A DNA stretch of 32,447 nt from a virus, in IMG/VR virus record IMGVR_UViG_3300048930_000010, positions 1 to 32,447 of that record, one strand, 5' to 3'. Each line of letters opens with the position of its first letter. Positions within the stretch are counted from its first letter, which is position 1. Below are positions 24,985 through 31,514 of this stretch, piece after piece. Both the position numbers and the translations under genes were made by a program. The notes beneath the pieces are model-generated. The model was given only the letters and a program-made list of their open reading frames with translations. It ran no database searches and was not told where the DNA came from.

Positions 24985-25001
24985 TTTGTCTCGCCCTTGT
25001 C

Positions 25002-25112
25002 TCAGCCAGTTTGCAACTCATTGATAACCAATAAGCACAACTGGCATGATACCACTCCAAAACCCCTTATTTCTCGCCACATCCCAGTTTTGGGTGTGTA
25101 GAGGTTATCCAT
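25002..25112 (-). CDS. Possible 36-residue protein
   Basis: Minus-strand ATG at 25112 overlaps the preceding stop (ATGGATAA) and has a GGGAGA ribosome site 4 bases upstream. The product begins MDNLYTPKTGMWREIRGFGV and ends CQLCLLVINELQTG, with a Cys-x2-Cys pair and a hydrophobic end. Coding character is modest. Two shorter alternative frames with ribosome sites start inside it (9 and 15 codons), so the assignment is uncertain. Confidence 0.42.
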   Translation of the reverse strand: MDNLYTPKTGMWREIRGFGVVSCQLCLLVINELQTG

Positions 25113-25563
25113 GATTCTCCCGCGCAAGGTGGGCGTCGATGCGGGCGACAAGATCGCACCCGATGAATACCTTGCTCTGCACTTCGGCAAGCAGCGCGTC
25201 CGCAGCGGCCAGCCTTTCCAGAATCATTTTGTTCATGTCACAGGAACCTTCAAACGCCGCCTCCGCGTTCTCCGCTCTGCGCTGTTGATCGGCGCAAGTG
25301 TTCGCCGCGTGTGTCAATTCCAGTTGCGTTGAGGCCAGCCGCGAGCGGAGTTCATCGTTGCATTTCACACACGTCAGTTGACACGCGCCCTCGCCGTGGG
25401 TGACGCAGCAGGCTTCACCGCCTTGTAATTTGGCCAGCCGCGAGCGGAGGGACTCGATCTCGTCGGCGGCTTCGTACAGGGTCACTGCGGCCCGTGGCAC
25501 TTCGTACCCGCTTGATATTGGTTCTGCCCATGCCCGCAGTTGCTCCACGATGTCACTTGTCAT
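25105..25563 (-). CDS. Coiled-coil early protein (SDIVEQLR family)
   Basis: The start is taken at ATG 25563 (152 residues: TSDIVEQLRAWAEPISSGYE), because the frame upstream lies inside the previous gene. The N-terminal SDIVEQLR...AADEIESLRSRL is a pattern shared with many phage early proteins of unknown role and with the next gene upstream. ELRSRLA occurs twice here, and DNA for it is repeated in the 397-residue gene. A Cys-rich middle (EACCVTHGEGACQLTCVKC, about 54-72) may bind zinc. The rest is coiled coil. The stop overlaps the next gene by 8 bases. The function is unknown. Confidence 0.68.
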   Translation of the reverse strand: MTSDIVEQLRAWAEPISSGYEVPRAAVTLYEAADEIESLRSRLAKLQGGEACCVTHGEGACQLTCVKCNDELRSRLASTQLELTHAANTCADQQRRAENAEAAFEGSCDMNKMILERLAAADALLAEVQSKVFIGCDLVARIDAHLARENHG

Positions 25564-25825
25564 GGCTCTGCTCCATTGCTGCGTCGATGGGCGGGTACGT
25601 GAATCCGGCCTCCAAGACCCATCGCTCCAGCGTGTTGAAGTCGTCGTCTTGCAGCAGATCCGCAAGTCTCGCCATCAATCGCTGAATCGCCTTGTTGCGC
25701 TGTTCCGCGTCCTTGCGCAGCGCCGTGTTCTCGGCGGTCAGGCGCTCCAAAGCGTCGGCGGCTTGTTGGCGCACTGCCAATCCGGGGTTCTGCGTTGAGC
25801 GCAGCCTCTCTACGATGTCACTCAT
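25553..25825 (-). CDS. Small coiled-coil early protein (SDIVERLR family)
   Basis: The 90-residue product begins MSDIVERLRSTQNPGLAVRQ and has AADALERLTAENTALRKDAE and RLMARLADLLQDDDFNTLER. It ends with a PPIDAAMEQS segment. It is a shortened relative of its neighbours: the TAENTALRKDAE block and the AIDAAM end also occur in the 397-residue protein upstream. The ATG (25823-25825) overlaps the end of that gene by four bases and this gene's end overlaps the next by 11. The function is unknown. Confidence 0.68.
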   Translation of the reverse strand: MSDIVERLRSTQNPGLAVRQQAADALERLTAENTALRKDAEQRNKAIQRLMARLADLLQDDDFNTLERWVLEAGFTYPPIDAAMEQSHDK

Positions 25826-27015
25826 GGTTCACTCCCGGTCACGGTTACAGTGGTTCTCGTCATCGCGTCCAGTTCGTTGAACTGATCTTCGTCCAGCAAG
25901 TCTGCACAGCGTGCCATGATCTTTTGCAGCAGACGGACGGCTATGTTGAAGTCGGCCTCGGACACGACGCGCACCTCGCCATTGAAGCCTTTTTCTGTGG
26001 TCCCGTAATTCGTCAGCGGACCCTGAATCCAATAGAACTTCACTGCGCCGTGAAGAACCGGTTGAGCAGTGGCAGCGAGGAACGGCAAGTCTTCTCGACA
26101 CATGGCACGAGAAATAGACTCGGTTTCTGCGCTGTGAGGAAACCTCTGCGTCTCGGCCAATTGTGCAGAGGTTGCGTCACGTTCCCCTGATGCGATGCAC
26201 GCGATGTTCTCAAGCCGCACTTCCGTGTTGACCGGACGCGGTTCGGCGGCGATGCCGTGAATGCGCGTCAATAACCCCCGAAGCCGCACGTTGTCGGCTT
26301 CCGAGTCCTCTAGGTCGCGCTCTACGTTGTAGAATTTGACGCGCAGGGCGACGATTTCAGCGTTCGGCAAGTCCTCCCGGCACATCGCCTGCGCGTAGGG
26401 CCACTCAGCCGGTGCGCTGCCCTTGTACCGCAGCGTGCCAAGTCCACTACAGGTTAGGCAGATACGATCCGTGCCTGCATACGCGCCTTCCCCTTTGCAC
26501 GCTTCACACATGACCTCCTGAACAGCCGGTGCGTCGTCCGGCTCTGGCGGTGAGTTGCAGTCACAGCGGGGGTAATCGACGCAACATCTTTCTGTCAGCC
26601 CGCAGTTGCAGACCTGCGCCATCAGTCCGTCCCAATACGAACATTCGGGAGTGTGTTTCTTTGCTGCTGCCGGCCGCGCTGCCAAGTGCATAGCCGCATC
26701 AATCGCCGCATCAGCGTCCTCTGGCGTGTCGCCATTGAATTCAAAAGGCCACGCACGATCCCGCAGCCACCGATACCGCTCCGCGTCCTTGCGCAGCGCC
26801 GCGTTATCGGCGGTCAAAGCGTCGTGCTTATCCCGCCACTCATGCGCCCACCGCTGTTGCGCCTTGCCGTGGGCGTCGGCCCCGGCCAGCCGCGAGCGGA
26901 GTTCGTCCACGTAGGCGAGCAGGGCGCGGCGGTCATTACAGGCGTCCTGATGGGACGCCCCCGGCGCACCCCTGCCCGCATCCCTCGCCCGGATCGCCTC
27001 AAGGTCAGGCTTCAT
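25822..27015 (-). CDS. Mosaic coiled-coil and zinc-binding early protein
   Basis: ATG 27015 (397 residues) is chosen because GGAAGA lies just upstream; an ATG at 27057 would lie deep inside the previous gene. Residues 1-110 contain LRSRLAGADAHGKAQQRW, LTADNAALRKDAERYRWLRD and ADAAIDAAM, a pattern common in phage proteins of unknown role. Residues about 118-150 are Cys-rich (CNCGLTERCCVDYPRCDC). A DnaJ-like zinc ribbon follows (CEACKGEGAY, CLTCSGLGTL; about 170-196). The C-terminal part repeats AMCREDLPNAE as AMCREDLPFLA and ends with a segment like that of the 90-residue neighbour. It looks assembled from parts of smaller genes. The function is unknown. Confidence 0.62.
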   Translation of the reverse strand: MKPDLEAIRARDAGRGAPGASHQDACNDRRALLAYVDELRSRLAGADAHGKAQQRWAHEWRDKHDALTADNAALRKDAERYRWLRDRAWPFEFNGDTPEDADAAIDAAMHLAARPAAAKKHTPECSYWDGLMAQVCNCGLTERCCVDYPRCDCNSPPEPDDAPAVQEVMCEACKGEGAYAGTDRICLTCSGLGTLRYKGSAPAEWPYAQAMCREDLPNAEIVALRVKFYNVERDLEDSEADNVRLRGLLTRIHGIAAEPRPVNTEVRLENIACIASGERDATSAQLAETQRFPHSAETESISRAMCREDLPFLAATAQPVLHGAVKFYWIQGPLTNYGTTEKGFNGEVRVVSEADFNIAVRLLQKIMARCADLLDEDQFNELDAMTRTTVTVTGSEP

Positions 27016-27202
27016 CGTAGTCTTCCGGTAGGTCGTAGCGGGAGAGTAGGTCATCAATACGCCGCATTAGCCGAAGCGTGTCAGGCGGGGACTCGTATGT
27101 TTCGCACCAAGAATGCAAGTCCGACCGAGACTCTCTTAGCAATTTCACCGCCTCATCCCTTTCCGCCTTCACCCGCTGCAAGTATTCTCCAAGAATGCTC
27201 AT
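27005..27202 (-). CDS. Small coiled-coil early protein
   Basis: A 65-residue product, MSILGEYLQRVKAERDEAVK followed by LLRESRSDLHSWCETYESPP and DTLRLMRRIDDLLSRYDLPE. It is helical and charged, with an acidic end. The LRLMRRIDDLL piece resembles the RLMARLADLL and IMARCADLL pieces in two neighbours, so it may belong to the same shuffled family. ATG 27202 overlaps the stop of the upstream membrane microprotein (ATGA). The function is unknown. Confidence 0.66.
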   Translation of the reverse strand: MSILGEYLQRVKAERDEAVKLLRESRSDLHSWCETYESPPDTLRLMRRIDDLLSRYDLPEDYDEA

Positions 27203-27291
27203 TTCCGATACACCGCAGCGGCGGCCAACAAGAACAGCGCGATCACGAACGCCGCCATCCAGAAGTGAAGCATACTGATCGTCATGGACAT
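27199..27291 (-). CDS. 30-residue membrane microprotein
   Basis: Minus-strand ATG at 27291, TGA at 27199-27201, coupled by ATGA to the next gene and overlapping the previous one by 10 bases. The product MSMTISMLHFWMAAFVIALF (then LLAAAAVYRK) is one transmembrane helix with a basic C-terminus. A second ATG two codons in is also possible. The function is unknown; it has the same architecture as the 30-residue protein at 24766-24858 although the sequences differ. Confidence 0.66.
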   Translation of the reverse strand: MSMTISMLHFWMAAFVIALFLLAAAAVYRK

Positions 27292-27464
27292 AACTCGTTC
27301 CTCTCTTTCCGTCGCGCTATTTCCTTCCACGCCCACAAGCCAATAAGAACCTCAAGCACCGTCGTCTTATCGTGAACGGTATGCTTGGCTACGCCATTCA
27401 AGAACGCTAAAGCGTCGGCGTCTAGCTCCAACTCGACTGTTTCAGCCTTTGCTTTTCTCACCAC
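27282..27464 (-). CDS. Ribbon-helix-helix-like small protein
   Basis: The 60-residue product starts at GTG 27462-27464 behind GAGGAAG. The sequence KAETVELELDADALAFLNGV, then AKHTVHDKTTVLEVLIGLWA, has the layout of a ribbon-helix-helix domain: a short polar beta strand, a first helix, then a second helix after a turn. This would make it a small DNA-binding regulator, perhaps of the early operon. The C-terminus is basic (KEIARRKERNE). The RHH call is by pattern only; no operator can be assigned. It overlaps both neighbours. Confidence 0.5.
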   Translation of the reverse strand: MVRKAKAETVELELDADALAFLNGVAKHTVHDKTTVLEVLIGLWAWKEIARRKERNELCP

Positions 27465-27669
27465 GCTTCCTCACAAACTGGTCCCACGGCGGGGAGGGCT
27501 TGACCAACGTACCTTCCAACTTGCGCCTCACGCCCTCCACGATGAAGCGCGTTTTGACTAAGGCTACGAACTCAGTGATTCCAGGTATGTCACGCTCAAG
27601 CTCCTCCCGCCGTAGTTGAAGTCGCTGTTCTATGGCTGCGGACGATTCCTCAAGCCGCCTGTTGTTCAC
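27442..27669 (-). CDS. Small charged helical protein
   Basis: A 75-residue product starting at GTG 27667-27669 within the end of the HNH gene. MNNRRLEESSAAIEQRLQLR and ELERDIPGITEFVALVKTRF are helical. It then has a Pro-containing segment (KPSPPWDQFVRK) and a basic end. I do not recognise it. The overlap of 20 bases upstream and 23 downstream fits the style of this operon. Confidence 0.58.
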   Translation of the reverse strand: MNNRRLEESSAAIEQRLQLRREELERDIPGITEFVALVKTRFIVEGVRRKLEGTLVKPSPPWDQFVRKRGEKSKG

Positions 27670-28093
27670 TTAGCGTCGTCTGCCGATGGGCCTTGCAATG
27701 GCACGAGCGGCACAGCCAAACAACATCCAGTGGGCGGCTGTAGTCAACATGGTGCCCCTCAATTCGTTCCGTACTCCCACAGTGCCAGCAGGCTTCGGCC
27801 CTGGTTATTCGGCCATCACGGACGGCTCCGCTTAGTGCGTTGTTCGCCTTTACGTGCAGTTTCGGCCTGCTTTTAAATAACGAAGCCAACTGCTGCTGCC
27901 TATGTGGCGTAGTCCGATACCGTGCTTTGTCGTATTCCCTGATGGCATCAAGGTTTTTCTCTCGGTGACCAGAGACATCTTTCTTTGTGCATTCTTTGCA
28001 CTTGTTTAGATGTCCGTCTTTCATCTGTTTATGCGGATAGAACGACTCAAGCGGTAGCAACTTACTGCACTTAAAGCAAACCTTTCCAGACAT
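27650..28093 (-). CDS. HNH-type endonuclease with N-terminal zinc motif
   Basis: ATG 28093 (147 residues) is preferred to TTG 28096 because it is coupled to the upstream stop (TGATG). The N-terminal part has C6, C9, C32 and C35 (CFKC...CKEC, a zinc-finger layout common in phage proteins). The C-terminal part has C102/C105 (CWHC), the pair H114-H115 in GHHVDYSRPLDVVWLC, C128/C131 (CRSC) and H136. This matches HNH nucleases in which the HH...CxxC...H block forms the beta-beta-alpha-metal site. It could be a free-standing homing-type nuclease or a DNA-processing enzyme. It sits beside recombination genes. Confidence 0.75.
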   Translation of the reverse strand: MSGKVCFKCSKLLPLESFYPHKQMKDGHLNKCKECTKKDVSGHREKNLDAIREYDKARYRTTPHRQQQLASLFKSRPKLHVKANNALSGAVRDGRITRAEACWHCGSTERIEGHHVDYSRPLDVVWLCRSCHCKAHRQTTLSEQQAA

Positions 28094-28347
28094 CAAAAAG
28101 GCACCGTATCGTCAAACTCCTCGGCTGGGGCGCTTTTAGACTGCACCGGAGCGCGAGTGTTGTTCGCGTTCTTCGGTGTAACAGACAAACTCATGTACTT
28201 CGCGCCAGCCTTCGATGTCTGGAGCCAAGATGAAATCCAGTAATCCACTCCGCCTACGTTCAGGCTGCCTTTATAGTCCGGGTGCCGTTCCTCGCGCTTG
28301 TCATCGTTTTTGAACAATGCTCCGCGATCCCGATTGTCGTATGCCAC
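28093..28347 (-). CDS. DUF736/SSB-like protein with acidic SSB tip
   Basis: The 84-residue product has the DUF736-like core ALFKNDDKREERHPDYKGSL followed by NVGGVDYWISSWLQTSKAGA and KYMSLSVTPKN. It then has a Pro/Ser/Ala linker and the ending EEFDDTVPF. That final block is the acidic tip of bacterial single-stranded-DNA-binding proteins (DDDIPF type), which recruits partner enzymes. An OB-fold SSB-like role in phage replication or recombination is therefore likely, next to ERF and YqaJ genes. The GTG start (28345-28347) overlaps the preceding TAG by one base. Confidence 0.68.
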   Translation of the reverse strand: MAYDNRDRGALFKNDDKREERHPDYKGSLNVGGVDYWISSWLQTSKAGAKYMSLSVTPKNANNTRAPVQSKSAPAEEFDDTVPF

Positions 28348-28496
28348 TATCGCTTGCCTCCAAGTAATGCGTTAAGAATTGCAACAACAAACAGCACGCC
28401 GAAGATCCAGAAGCACCATGTAGCCTGCTGCGTATGCCCGGTTGCCGTGAATGTGATCCCGGCGAGAAGGAATAGGTCTAGCGAGTCAATCTTCAC
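28347..28496 (-). CDS. 49-residue membrane microprotein
   Basis: Minus-strand GTG at 28494-28496 and TAG at 28347-28349. The product MKIDSLDLFLLAGITFTATG continues HTQQATWCFWIFGVLFVVAI and ends LNALLGGKR. This gives one weak and one strong transmembrane segment and a basic C-terminus. The start lies in the last codons of the DUF3310 gene and the stop is coupled by one base to the next start, so it fits the operon exactly. The function is unknown. Confidence 0.65.
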   Translation of the reverse strand: MKIDSLDLFLLAGITFTATGHTQQATWCFWIFGVLFVVAILNALLGGKR

Positions 28497-28903
28497 GGCG
28501 CGAGCCTGTGGCAGTACCAACCAGCCTTACCAATGTCCGTATCACCGCCCTTATATTTCTCCCGCCAGATGTAAGCCACTGCCTGCCCCTTGCAGTAGCC
28601 CCTGAATTCCTCAACGGTCAGCATGGACTTGATTGCGTCAATGCACTCAATCTCACCCTGCGTATAGTGAGGTGGCTTATTGATAACTTCCTTATGCGTG
28701 GGCAAATCGTACAGCCCAAGCCGCTGTGACTCTTTCTGCAAATCACACAACGCTTGCAGCCGCTTCTCGTCAGTCTGTGCATACGGCCAGCCCGTAGCCT
28801 CAAATCTGTTGTCCTTCCTCGACTCGTCGCAGTCATGCTCCATCGCGTTCATCTCCCGTATCCAGTCCGCCTTGTGCGCGTTGTCTACGCAATCCTTTCC
28901 CAT
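28493..28903 (-). CDS. DUF3310 protein (T7 gp1.7-like)
   Basis: ATG 28903 (136 residues) is chosen because GGAGG lies 4 bases upstream; the frame is open for 400 bases further but there it is only a shadow of the exonuclease gene. The C-terminal half VINKPPHYTQGEIECIDAIK (about 73-92), EFRGYCKGQAVAYIWREKYK and GGDTDIGKAGWYCHRL is the DUF3310 domain. T7 gp1.7, which carries this domain, is a nucleotide kinase, so a role in nucleotide metabolism is possible. The N-terminal 70 residues are a charged helix without recognised function. It overlaps the exonuclease gene by 19 bases. Confidence 0.78.
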   Translation of the reverse strand: MGKDCVDNAHKADWIREMNAMEHDCDESRKDNRFEATGWPYAQTDEKRLQALCDLQKESQRLGLYDLPTHKEVINKPPHYTQGEIECIDAIKSMLTVEEFRGYCKGQAVAYIWREKYKGGDTDIGKAGWYCHRLAP

Positions 28904-29451
28904 GTGGCCTCCAGCGGAATCTTCTTGAACTGGCCCCGTTTCGGCTCCAAACCAGCCGTTAATGAGCGCCAGTATTCTTTTAGTATCGACTCCACGCTCG
29001 GCCAGTAGCTTTGCGATTTTGTCGTCCTCCAGATCCGGCATTCGTCCGGCGTCCAGGCGCATAGGTCCGCTACTCCCTCGTCTGTGAACTGAAGCTGACT
29101 CTGGCACTGCACCCAATACTGAATCGGGGGAGTCTCGTACATCCTCTGCGGACATTTTGCTTCCACCGTACCAAGCTGCGTTCGGCCATCCAATGTAGCT
29201 CCGCTCCAATCCTCCCATGCGATCCACTCCTGCTGGCTTGTAACGATGTCGCCGGTAAGTACCTCGTACTCCGCTATCGCATCGCATTCGTGGTCCGTCC
29301 CCCACTGCATCCTGGCGACAGCCTGCTCATCCGGTTCCTCCATCCCGTGCCAGCGTCGCCAGAATGCTTGCGGTGACTGATAGCCGTGACCTAGTGCGAC
29401 TGCGTGCGCGGAAGCTGTAAACCGCCCCTCGCGGTCCTTATGCAGCGCCAT
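28885..29451 (-). CDS. YqaJ-type recombination exonuclease
   Basis: The 188-residue protein has the order of a YqaJ/lambda-exonuclease-like nuclease: FTASAHAVALGHGYQSPQAF, then MQWGTDHECDAIAEYEVLTG with E55, the D88 in ATLDG, the ExK pair E97/K99 in LGTVEAKCP, and IQYWVQCQSQLQFTD with the Gln residues expected of the family. These make a PD-(D/E)xK metal site. It would digest one DNA strand to give 3' overhangs for the ERF annealing protein encoded two genes upstream. The ATG (29449-29451) overlaps the previous gene by 14 bases. Confidence 0.82.
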   Translation of the reverse strand: MALHKDREGRFTASAHAVALGHGYQSPQAFWRRWHGMEEPDEQAVARMQWGTDHECDAIAEYEVLTGDIVTSQQEWIAWEDWSGATLDGRTQLGTVEAKCPQRMYETPPIQYWVQCQSQLQFTDEGVADLCAWTPDECRIWRTTKSQSYWPSVESILKEYWRSLTAGLEPKRGQFKKIPLEATWERIA

Positions 29452-29719
29452 CTAAAGACGCCTCTCGCGGAGGAAGCGCGGCAATCCTGTCGAGAACATC
29501 TTCTACTTCCGAGTGAGTGAGGGATCCAAGTACGTAATCTGTAATCGGAGTGTCATAGCAAAGATCCCCGCCCCACAAAACAGCGACCTCAAGAAGACCG
29601 CGCTCTTCTCCATGCCCGTCAGTAATGACTGAAGCCGTGTACCCGTTATCAAAAGTGTGCCTAGCAAACGACCCAAGGCCACCGGGCTTCTTTTTGAACT
29701 TGAGGTCTCGATAGTTCAT
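29438..29719 (-). CDS. Unknown 93-residue early protein
   Basis: The product begins MNYRDLKFKKKPGGLGSFAR, is beta-rich in the middle (YTASVITDGHGEERGLLEVA, then VLWGGDLCYDTPI) and ends with a helix (LTHSEVEDVLDRIAALP). I do not recognise a family. It lies between the annealing and exonuclease genes, which suggests a part in the same recombination step. ATG 29719 is coupled by ATGA to the ERF stop. Confidence 0.66.
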   Translation of the reverse strand: MNYRDLKFKKKPGGLGSFARHTFDNGYTASVITDGHGEERGLLEVAVLWGGDLCYDTPITDYVLGSLTHSEVEDVLDRIAALPPREASLDGAA

Positions 29720-30351
29720 TTCCCCTCCGCCGTCTCTCGAAGACTGTCAAACCACTTCTTATCCCCCTGCGCGAGCTTCCTCGTCGCCCCGTCCAGCGTC
29801 TTCCAGTAGTCTCGGAAAGGCCCGACGCCCTGTTTCGCGGCGGCTTCCAACTCGTCCTTCACAACCTGGTCCAGCACAGGCGCAGCGGTGTCCTCGGCTG
29901 TCTCCTTGTCGCCATCCTCGTTCCCATTCAAGGGAATCTGGAACGTGTGGAACGCCATGTACTTCAGGGCCATCGTCAGTGCTTTGCTGAGGCTCTTGTC
30001 CCCGGTATCAGCAGCCTCACCAGCGTAGTAAACCTCTACACTCGACCCGTCCTCCACGCTCACGAACGTGTACCGAACGAACGCAGTTGTGAAGAACTGT
30101 AGCGTTCCCTTAGAGGTCGGCGCTTCCTTCCGCTCCACTGTCCCCAAATTTGGAATCATCACAACACCGGAGGCTTGCAGGGCTTTCTGCAACACCGCAT
30201 ATAAATCGTCGATTCCACGGAACTTGAACCCCTGGTGCTGGTTGGTCTGGTTCTTCGCCAAACCCTTCTCAGCCAAGTGGTCACGGACAGCGGCTAGACC
30301 TGCGTAAATCTTCTTTGGAACTTGAAGGTCAGTCTCGTACTCGTAACTCAT
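29716..30351 (-). CDS. ERF-family single-strand annealing protein
   Basis: ATG 30351 (211 residues) is fixed by its ATGA overlap with the upstream microprotein; a GTG at 30363 is less likely. The ERF signature is clear: QHQGFKFRGIDDLYAVLQKA (39-58) with the FRGIDD block, and AGEAADTGDKSLSKALTMAL (110-129) followed by KYMAFHTFQIP. ERF proteins, first known from P22, anneal complementary single strands and work with an exonuclease, here the YqaJ-type enzyme two genes on. The C-terminal 60 residues are a charged helical tail, probably for partner contact. Confidence 0.88.
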   Translation of the reverse strand: MSYEYETDLQVPKKIYAGLAAVRDHLAEKGLAKNQTNQHQGFKFRGIDDLYAVLQKALQASGVVMIPNLGTVERKEAPTSKGTLQFFTTAFVRYTFVSVEDGSSVEVYYAGEAADTGDKSLSKALTMALKYMAFHTFQIPLNGNEDGDKETAEDTAAPVLDQVVKDELEAAAKQGVGPFRDYWKTLDGATRKLAQGDKKWFDSLRETAEGK

Positions 30352-30512
30352 CGCTTCCCCCACTGTGACTCTTTCCCGTTCCGCTCAATGATCCGCTTCC
30401 AATGCGCTACCCGGTCATCCTCGGTCGGCACACTGCGGGCGATGAGTTCGGCAATGCCCCAGACTGCGATCAGGGCGAGGCAGGTAACTAGCATCAAGAT
30501 TTCCCATTCCAT
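30348..30512 (-). CDS. 54-residue membrane protein
   Basis: Minus-strand ATG at 30512 (overlapping the previous TGA by one base) and TGA at 30348-30350 (overlapping the ERF ATG). The product MEWEILMLVTCLALIAVWGI (then AELIARSVPTEDDRVAHWKR) has one transmembrane helix at about 4-22 and a charged cytoplasmic-type tail ending KESQWGKR. It is exactly nested between solid genes. The function is unknown. Confidence 0.7.
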   Translation of the reverse strand: MEWEILMLVTCLALIAVWGIAELIARSVPTEDDRVAHWKRIIERNGKESQWGKR

Positions 30513-30841
30513 CAGTAGCTATCCTCGTAAGAAGTTTCCTGCTCCTTCGCCTCGCGCATCTCGTTCTCAATGAACGGCGACCCGATGACGTAGGCTCTAA
30601 GTGCTTTGTCTAACACGGCCCCGACCTGAAGGAAGTCCCCATCCCGGTAAGCCGATACGAGGCTTGACCGGATCTGCGGAGACCGAACCAGGGTCTCAAT
30701 CAGCGCGTCGTAAAGGTGGTCAGGGACTTCGGTGTAAATGTCAGCGGTGAACTGTCTTTGGTCGGCAGGGGAGAGGTCTGCCGTACCGTCCGGCTCGACC
30801 CCTCCGGTAATCCAGTCCAGAAGGATGTCTCTTAGGCTCAT
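30512..30841 (-). CDS. First gene of the minus early operon, unknown
   Basis: The 109-residue product begins MSLRDILLDWITGGVEPDGT, is mainly helical (ADQRQFTADIYTEVPDHLYD, ALIETLVRSPQIRSSLVSAY) and ends in an acidic tail (REAKEQETSYEDSY). I do not recognise it. ATG 30841 has a near-perfect ribosome site (GGAGGTCAA). A sigma70-like promoter stands 25-53 bases upstream, so this gene is probably expressed early and strongly. Confidence 0.72.
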   Translation of the reverse strand: MSLRDILLDWITGGVEPDGTADLSPADQRQFTADIYTEVPDHLYDALIETLVRSPQIRSSLVSAYRDGDFLQVGAVLDKALRAYVIGSPFIENEMREAKEQETSYEDSY

Positions 30842-30865
30842 TTGACCTCCAACTTAGGAGCATCT

Positions 30866-30894
30866 ATAGTAAACCTATTATTTGCCCTTGTCAA
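30866..30894 (-). promoter_or_regulatory. Sigma70-like promoter for the minus operon
   Basis: Read on the minus strand: -35 TTGACA (30894-30889), a 17-base spacer, -10 TACTAT (30871-30866). The -35 matches consensus fully, the -10 in four of six bases. It stands directly upstream of the ribosome site of the gene starting at 30841. Confidence 0.7.
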
Positions 30895-30931
30895 CACCCG
30901 TTAATTGACCTAGAATAGTATCTATATGGCC

Positions 30932-30967
30932 TATTTTGCATGTAGAACTTATTTTGCATGTAGAACT
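30932..30967. repeat. Two exact 18-bp tandem repeats in divergent control region
   Basis: TATTTTGCATGTAGAACT occurs twice head to tail (30932-30949 and 30950-30967) without a mismatch. The repeats are AT-rich, contain the palindrome TGCA, and stand between the two divergent promoters, 37 bases from the minus -35 and 8 bases from the plus -35. This is the position of an operator or activator site controlling both directions; a short origin-type iteron is the alternative. Confidence 0.75.
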
Positions 30968-30975
30968 TAAAGGGC

Positions 30976-31004
30976 TTGACAGGAGTTGGTGATCGTGCTA
31001 TCCT
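30976..31004 (+). promoter_or_regulatory. Sigma70-like promoter for the plus early operon
   Basis: TTGACA (30976-30981), 17-base spacer, TATCCT (30999-31004). It predicts a transcript starting near 31011, which is the very base before the first paired base of the leader three-way junction. The -35 is perfect; the -10 has four of six consensus bases. Confidence 0.65.
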
Positions 31005-31011
31005 TCTAAAC

Positions 31012-31084
31012 ACTGGCAGTCCGGGGTCTGATTAAGGTAGTCAGATCGCTATACCAAGGAAAACCTAATGGGTAGCCTGCCAGT
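31012..31084 (+). ncRNA. Three-way-junction leader RNA
   Basis: Three stems close on each other. P1 is 8 bp (31012-31019 with 31077-31084). P2 is 7 bp with one G-U (31025-31031 with 31041-31047), loop TTAAGGTAG. P3 runs from GCTA (31048-31051, with 31073-31076) through CC/GG (31054-31055 with 31071-31072) to AGG/CCT (31057-31059 with 31064-31066), loop AAAA. P2-P3 and P3-P1 have no spacer; only TCCGG (31020-31024) joins P1 to P2. A ribosome site (AGGA, 31057-31060) and ATG (31068-31070) lie inside P3. It may be a translation-controlling leader element. I could not match it to a known riboswitch class or to a canonical tRNA. Confidence 0.5.
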
Positions 31085-31277
31085 CACGTACCGGGTCACG
31101 TCGGTCATGGAGCGAAAGCGAATAGCGTGTCAGTAGTGGATCCAGGGTAGCGGTCTGGTATCTGCGCAAGCCCGGGCACTGATTATCTCCCAATCAACCC
31201 GGCCCTCCCTAGACGAGGAGCCGCAGCCGATGCCAACCTCCCCAGATCGGAGGGAGGATAAGGGGAGGGATTATGCC
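31068..31277 (+). pseudogene. Leader reading frame interrupted by an amber codon
   Basis: From ATG 31068 (AGGA 7 bases upstream) the frame reads MGSLPVTYRVTSVMERKRIA then CQ, stops at TAG 31134-31136, and continues in the same frame without another stop to TGA 31275-31277: WIQGSGLVSAQARALIISQS, then TRPSLDEEPQPMPTSPDRRE and a short basic-acidic end. The joined product would be 68 amino acids plus the amber position. Both halves have plausible protein composition. It may be a 22-residue leader peptide, a readthrough product, a gene broken by one mutation, or simply an open frame over a structured RNA. Confidence 0.4.
31172..31202 (+). other. Hairpin in the early leader
   Basis: CCGGG (31172-31176) pairs with CCCGG (31198-31202), and TGATT (31180-31184) pairs with AATCA (31192-31196) around the loop ATCTCCC. 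A further CCTCC/GGAGG hairpin (31237-31241 with 31249-31253) lies downstream. With the three-way junction they make most of the 290-base leader before the gene at 31299 structured. Confidence 0.4.
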
Positions 31278-31298
31278 TGAAGTCAACGGAGGTTAACA

Positions 31299-31514
31299 GT
31301 GACCGTAGAAGACCTTGAGAACGCGAAACTCCTGAAAGCTCTCCACGATGCCGCCTCCGCTGTTTCTTACTACCACGCTGCTGAGGCGGATTGGGACAAG
31401 GAGCATGAGGAAAGAGCGAAGGCGCTGATTCAGTGGGGAGAGTTGAAGGCAGAGGCGATCAAGCGGGGAGTTTATAACAAGCATGACTTTAAGTATTACC
31501 TGGTAGTGACGTGA
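31299..31514 (+). CDS. Unknown 71-residue early protein
   Basis: GTG 31299 has GGAGGT 6 bases upstream. The product begins MTVEDLENAKLLKALHDAAS, is helical (AEADWDKEHEERAKALIQWG) and ends with an aromatic block, HDFKYYLVVT. It is the first firm gene of the plus early operon and lies after the long structured leader, so its expression may depend on that leader. I do not recognise a family. The stop is coupled by GTGA to the next gene. Confidence 0.65.
   Translation: MTVEDLENAKLLKALHDAASAVSYYHAAEADWDKEHEERAKALIQWGELKAEAIKRGVYNKHDFKYYLVVT

What the first reader, a model, noticed from the sequence alone, without database searches (positions are those of the whole stretch)
31012..31084. Compact three-way-junction RNA at the predicted 5' end of the early transcript
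Three stems (8, 7 and about 9 bp) close on each other with only one five-base joiner, starting one or two bases after the predicted transcription start. A ribosome site and start codon are buried in the third arm, so folding would directly control translation. I could not place it in a known riboswitch class. It may be a ligand- or protein-sensing leader, or a free small RNA with a role in the early switch.
Basis: partly seen in the sequence, partly recalled or inferred. Interest (0 to 1): 0.75.

Follow-up and report, generated by a model that had tools for sequence, protein, structure and literature searches.

The report
Orphan folded RNA opening phage transcript
A phage's early transcript is predicted to begin with a compact folded RNA whose function is unproven and for which no relative could be found; its closest sister phage carries a quite different RNA, a remote member of the catalogued family RF02932, in exactly the same place, so this looks like a slot for exchangeable early-control RNAs.

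Summary
The predicted fold is real as a computation: 31012-31084 closes into a three-way junction (P1 8 bp, P2 10 bp, P3 11 bp in pieces, one 5-nt joiner). It starts 1-2 nt after the start predicted for a promoter TTGACA-17-TATCCT. It is more stable than shuffles (z about -4.3 for the exact 74 nt; p about 0.01 after scanning 74-nt windows). No homologue of the element was found, so covariation could be neither shown nor refuted. The only relative holding the locus (L002; flanking genes 88-92% identical in DNA, promoter block about 98%) has an unrelated sequence from the -10 region to the first gene. That sequence is a remote member of Rfam RF02932 (Betaproteobacteria-1), also starting at the predicted TSS. 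In a second phage group with a similar layout RF02932 also opens the rightward transcript. The window element fails the RF02932 test. Best reading: an orphan 5'-terminal leader RNA in a slot for exchangeable early-control RNAs, most likely acting in cis on its own transcript. Chance folding remains a serious rival. By-product: RF02932 has a covarying loop-loop kissing helix and an H-type pseudoknot absent from the Rfam structure line shown.

The parts
30976..31004 (+). Rightward early promoter TTGACA-17-TATCCT (TG before the -10), predicted +1 about 31011
   Evidence: the -35 is shared with L002, sequences part company from the spacer onward
31012..31084 (+). Three-way-junction RNA: P1 31012-31019/31077-31084, P2 31025-31034/31038-31047, P3 31048-31059/31064-31076, joiner 31020-31024
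31068..31136 (+). 22-codon ORF (MGSLPVTYRVTSVMERKRIACQ) with AAGG at 31056-31059, start buried in P3; probably not a gene
   Evidence: read from sequence; no counterpart in L002
31020..31095 (+). Possible pseudoknot UCCGG 31020-31024 with CCGGG 31091-31095; unsupported, expected by chance about 1 time in 8
   Evidence: read from sequence, hand estimate
31085..31298 (+). Rest of the noncoding leader up to the first gene; not more structured than shuffles (z about +1)
31299..31514 (+). First conserved gene of the rightward early operon, 71 aa, unknown family, GTG start with GGAGG 6 nt upstream
30866..30894 (-). Divergent leftward early promoter TTGACA-17-TACTAT of the ERF operon
30932..30967 (.). 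Tandem 18-bp repeat TATTTTGCATGTAGAACT x2 between the promoters; one copy in L002; possible operator
29716..30363 (-). ERF single-strand annealing protein of the divergent operon

Best explanation
31012-31084 is a genuine 5'-terminal RNA domain of the rightward early transcript. It lies in a slot, between the early promoter and the first early gene, that in the sister phage and in similarly arranged phages is filled by a different structured RNA (RF02932). Inferred mechanism: it folds as soon as about 75 nt have been made and acts in cis on its own transcript, either by engaging the transcribing polymerase as HK022 putRNA does (suppressing pausing or termination) or by shielding the 5' end of the early mRNA from decay; the polymerase option is slightly preferred. 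Shown by computation: the fold, its start at the predicted TSS, the swapped leader, and RF02932 in the same slot elsewhere. Inferred: transcription, function and mechanism.
For: Fold above chance. Its 5' stem begins 1-2 nt after the predicted +1. Sister L002: promoter block about 98% identical and flanking genes 88-92%, but 31005-31298 is replaced; local alignment of the two leaders is no better than shuffles, p 0.41. The L002 leader is a remote RF02932 RNA from its own predicted TSS: 26.6 bits, E 0.003 over all 4227 families, independent of my models, with both pseudoknot helices kept by different sequence. In L049/L097/L108/L119/L122/L133/L135 RF02932 starts 15-20 nt after a predicted TSS (promoters with 9-11 of 12 matches) and is followed by a primase-helicase gene; ERF and/or a CI-like repressor gene lies divergently upstream where the contig reaches. 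The leader has no terminator and no convincing ORF.
Against: No homologue, so no covariation for the junction itself. P1 is not favoured in the full-length leader. Elsewhere RF02932 lies inside operons, after primase, cro or tRNA genes, sometimes just after a terminator, which does not fit a simple promoter-proximal antiterminator. RF02932's own function is unknown. No transcript data.
Confidence: 0.42

Rival explanations
1. A fortuitous fold in a fast-changing spacer: the leader is unconserved DNA between promoter and first gene, and a stable hairpin at its start is chance or a generic 5' stem.
For: Scan-corrected p only about 0.01 and 2.4% of the window folds as well; no homologue anywhere searched; rest of the leader unstructured; sister has an unrelated sequence.
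Against: Start coincides with the predicted TSS; the slot holds a covarying structured RNA in L002 and in a second phage group.
Confidence: 0.33
2. A translation-control leader: P3 hides the SD and AUG of a 22-codon leader peptide, and folding or a ligand or protein sets its translation.
For: AAGG and AUG are inside P3 with workable spacing.
Against: The peptide is 22 codons without a relative or a counterpart in L002; the first conserved gene starts 215 nt downstream of the junction with its own SD; no Rfam riboswitch match at E up to 10.
Confidence: 0.12
3. A free small RNA, processed from the early transcript, acting in trans on host or phage targets.
For: Compact, stable, 5'-terminal; the RNA in the sister's slot is typed by Rfam as an sRNA.
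Against: No intrinsic terminator in 30800-31400; release would need processing.
Confidence: 0.1
4. A very divergent RF02932 RNA in which P2 and P3 have grown inside the first hairpin loop.
For: Same slot; CCGG in the first loop and ACCGGG in the next loop resemble the apparent CCGG/CCGG pairing of the divergent tandem copy in G017; AGCGAAAGCGAAUAGCG loosely resembles GGCGAAGNUAGCG.
Against: Model R1, filters off, gives at best -0.1 bits at the locus and nothing convincing in the window; CCGG lies at the wrong end of the loop.
Confidence: 0.03

Closest known systems
Rfam RF02932, Betaproteobacteria-1 RNA
   Same: Occupies the same place in the sister phage L002, and the 5' leader of the rightward early transcript in a second phage group with ERF and/or a CI-like repressor divergently upstream.
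   Different: Two hairpins in series with kissing loops and an H-type pseudoknot; the window has a single three-way junction and no model score.
HK022 putL/putR antiterminator RNA (PMC9378689)
   Same: About 70 nt, structured, at or near the start of a phage early transcript (putL lies just downstream of PL), no protein partner evident.
   Different: put is two stem-loops side by side; here P1 encloses the other two arms. put exists in two related copies in HK022; only one is seen here. Function untested.
phi29 packaging RNA (pRNA)
   Same: A phage RNA with a three-way junction (own knowledge).
   Different: Different phage type; no match in the Rfam searches.
5'-terminal stem-loops that stabilise mRNAs, such as the ompA leader
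   Same: Stem begins within 1-2 nt of the 5' end (own knowledge).
   Different: No half-life data; a junction rather than a simple hairpin.

Membership tests
RF02932 Betaproteobacteria-1 | Score against the family model (Rfam and my R1) | tested here: not met
   No Rfam match to RF02932 at E up to 10 in 30900-31310; R1 best -0.1 bits at the locus. The sister L002 scores 26.6 bits, E 0.003, below the gathering score 49.4
RF02932 Betaproteobacteria-1 | First hairpin loop GUCGGG...CAG and second loop ACUGUGGG joined by a 4-bp kissing helix | tested here: not met
   Not found in window 31011-31298 by R1 or by eye; in the family 52 of 54 members with letters there keep all four pairs (table), 98.4% of cells paired on distinct rows
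RF02932 Betaproteobacteria-1 | H-type pseudoknot 3' of the second hairpin (GGGnGGCGAAGnUAGC...CCC...GGCUG) | tested here: not met
   No recognisable counterpart in the window; covarying in the family
HK022 put RNA | Lies at or near the start of an early phage transcript | tested here: met
   By predicted promoter only
HK022 put RNA | Two stem-loops in series | tested here: not met
   Three-way junction closed by P1 against the description in PMC9378689
HK022 put RNA | Antitermination and anti-pausing through the beta' zinc-binding domain | not testable with these tools
   Needs transcription assays
Known riboswitch or other Rfam class | Match to a curated covariance model | tested here: not met
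   No match at gathering score in the window; only snoRNA, pestivirus and miRNA noise at E 0.4-4.4

The most novel reading that the evidence does not exclude
ERF-type phages keep an RNA slot between the early promoter and the first early gene, filled by interchangeable, unrelated structured RNAs (the RF02932 kissing-loop/pseudoknot RNA, or the new three-way junction of this window) that do the same job on the early transcript, such as factor-free modification of the transcribing polymerase.
Probability: 0.25. Interest if true: 0.75.

Novelty: new variant of a known kind. Interest (0 to 1): 0.42.

Why it matters
If the slot reading is right, two unrelated RNA folds serve one early-control step, which would make the unknown function of RF02932 directly testable. 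RNAs that modify the polymerase without a dedicated protein (putRNA) are few, so a second type would be of general interest. The kissing helix and pseudoknot give a better model for finding and testing RF02932 RNAs.

Tried and rejected
Rfam at E up to 10 on the leader: noise only. Distant blastn of the leader against phages: none; against plasmids: two weak hits, the better one reading as coding sequence by eye, not checked with a tool. Scans with four flanking proteins found only L002; a scan with the leader read through as a pseudo-protein found nothing; a scan with an 18-nt promoter string found L002 plus five unrelated contigs. Single-sequence model R2 found no second copy in 35 sources. 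The other close capsid relatives (G002-G004) gave no match to the early region. The similarity CUAAUGGGUAGCCU/CUACUGGGGAGCCU between window and L002 is at chance level (p 0.41). Direct repeat 31018-31034/31169-31185 (14 of 17) judged near chance. Tested whether RF02932 members in general start at a promoter: no, only L002 has a 9-of-12 promoter ending 0-14 nt upstream, about as often as control positions; the L119-type group has its promoter 15-20 nt further up. Partial R1 hits in G010/G013/G019 look like coding sequence by eye and were set aside.

Full report
Observation. Window 31010-31090 reads ACACUGGCAGUCCGGGGUCUGAUUAAGGUAGUCAGAUCGCUAUACCAAGGAAAACCUAAUGGGUAGCCUGCCAGUCACGUA. The minimum-energy and centroid folds agree on a three-way junction: P1 31012-31019/31077-31084 (8 bp), P2 31025-31034/31038-31047 (10 bp, loop AGG), P3 31048-31059/31064-31076 (11 bp in three pieces, AAAA loop), and one joiner, UCCGG. 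The 96-nt stretch has z -2.3, the exact 74 nt z -4.3, and after scanning windows p is about 0.01. P1 has probability above 0.9 until the transcript is about 158 nt long, then competes with downstream pairing and stands at 0.26 in the 288-nt leader; P2 and P3 persist at 0.73 and 0.89. Its strength is moderate, not overwhelming.

Setting. The window is a fragment of a tailed phage (portal PHROG 1216, major head protein PHROG 1328) with a leftward operon that includes ERF and a RecE-like exonuclease and a divergent rightward operon of small unknown proteins. Divergent promoters TTGACA-17-TACTAT (left) and TTGACA-17-TATCCT (right) lie between them, and no intrinsic terminator is predicted in 30800-31400. 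The right promoter predicts +1 at about 31011, one nucleotide before P1. The leader runs 288 nt to a GTG start at 31299. A 22-codon ORF starts inside P3 (31068). It has no counterpart in L002.

Homologues. Four protein scans of IMG/VR with flanking genes returned a single contig holding the locus, L002. Its neighbouring genes are 88-92% identical in DNA and its promoter block is about 98% identical, but similarity ends at the right-hand promoter and resumes at the first codons of the 71-aa gene. The two leaders align no better than shuffles (p 0.41). No other copy of the window leader was found.

What the sister carries. L002 2785-2873, from its own predicted TSS, matches Rfam RF02932 (Betaproteobacteria-1 sRNA): 26.6 bits, E 0.003 for all 4227 families, below the gathering score of 49.4. 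It is an end-to-end match. A pattern scan of viral contigs plus stem checks gave about 30 strong members, of which the typical ones score far above gathering. My model R1 (A1, 17 sequences including L002) finds 55 members in held loci; L002's R1 score of 47.9 bits is not independent, the Rfam score is. L129 links L002 to the family: the two share the pseudoknot region with compensating changes (read by eye). R1 with filters off gives no credible match in the window, so the window element is not an RF02932 RNA.

RF02932 structure. Hairpins HP1 and HP2 covary strongly. Two further contacts are not in the Rfam structure line as displayed. First, an H-type pseudoknot after HP2 (A1). Second, a kissing helix between the 3' end of the HP1 loop and the 5' part of the HP2 loop. 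In A3, 54 of 55 rows have letters there, and by the table 52 of them show four standard pairs, in eight different sequence pairs (GCAG/CUGU, ACAG/CUGU, CCAG/CUGG, GUGG/CCAC, GCAG/CUGC, GUAG/CUAC, CUAG/CUAG, UCAG/CUGA); the two exceptions are L179 and L002 itself, which keeps three of the four. On distinct rows 98.4% of cells pair, with double changes at three of four pairs, beyond every shuffle for the covariation score. A3 was fitted to R1, which does not contain this helix, so the fit does not create it.

RF02932 setting. In seven contigs of a second phage group (L049, L097, L108, L119, L122, L133, L135) the RNA starts 15-20 nt after the TSS of a predicted promoter (9 to 11 matches of 12; weakest in L097/L122), and in most of them it precedes a primase-helicase gene (Toprim and DnaB_C domains shown for L119). 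Divergently upstream lie ERF (L049, L119, L122, L133) and/or an HTH repressor with a weak S24 match (L108, L119, L135) (Pfam was run on the L119 repressor and the L122 ERF, the others were recognised by sequence similarity). Elsewhere the RNA lies within operons: after a primase gene in Acidovorax phage AP1, after a tRNA cluster in MW202545, after a Cro-like gene in L067, in tandem behind a terminator in G017 (terminator read by eye). It occurs in 14 of 393 Burkholderiaceae genomes, several with XRE-type genes nearby as judged by eye. Its function is not known to me, and no paper in the library names it.

Interpretation. The sister comparison shows that the leader is exchanged as a block, and that what sits there in the sister is a conserved structured RNA. 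The simplest reading is that the window junction is also a functional RNA in that slot. The mechanism is inferred. A cis effect on the transcript is favoured because the fold opens the transcript, forms early, and is not followed by a terminator. HK022 putRNA, about 70 nt, located (as putL) just downstream of PL and acting without a dedicated protein (PMC9378689), is the nearest working analogue, but its topology is two stem-loops in series, and HK022 25000-30500, the region between erf and gene O, has no R1 match. Chance folding of an unconserved spacer remains a serious rival, because the junction itself has no comparative support.

Caveats. TSS positions are promoter-consensus predictions. 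The viral RF02932 members were gathered with a pattern that fixes parts of both loops (GTCGGG...AC..CAGC...CTGNGGG), which biases them towards CAG/CUG; most of the variant kissing pairs come from Burkholderiaceae genomes found with the Rfam model and from phage record L145, which were not chosen by that pattern. Related rows count as separate sequences in the pair tables, so the number of independent changes is smaller than the number of cells.

Noticed in passing
Alignment A3 (55 RF02932 members in 54 loci from L002 to L181): RF02932 has a loop-loop kissing helix between hairpins 1 and 2 (98.4% of cells paired, double changes at three of four pairs) and an H-type pseudoknot, neither in the Rfam structure line displayed.
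   Followed up: yes
L163 2930-3060 and 2757-2888 (-), G017: Tandem RF02932 copies downstream of a terminator; the upstream copy is very divergent and appears to use CCGG/CCGG for the kissing contact.
   Followed up: partly
L043, L168, L177, L181: Chromosomal RF02932 RNAs in Burkholderiaceae with XRE-type regulator genes nearby (HipA-like fragment beside L043); judged by eye.
   Followed up: partly
L169, L173, L175: A small protein with the motif IP(F/Y)PL..GW or similar follows the RF02932 RNA in several Burkholderiaceae genomes; unknown family.
   Followed up: no
window 30932-30967: Perfect tandem 18-bp repeat between the divergent early promoters, single in the sister L002; possible operator although no repressor gene was recognised in the window.
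   Followed up: no
L002 2110-2340: Low-complexity GTAGCC/GTCGCC repeats encoding Gly-Tyr/Gly-Asp runs, and an extra 119-aa gene, inserted next to the early promoters in the sister phage only.
   Followed up: no
window 31273-31296: Seven-codon ORF MPEVNGG with its own SD ends on the SD of the first early gene; possible translational coupling.
   Followed up: no
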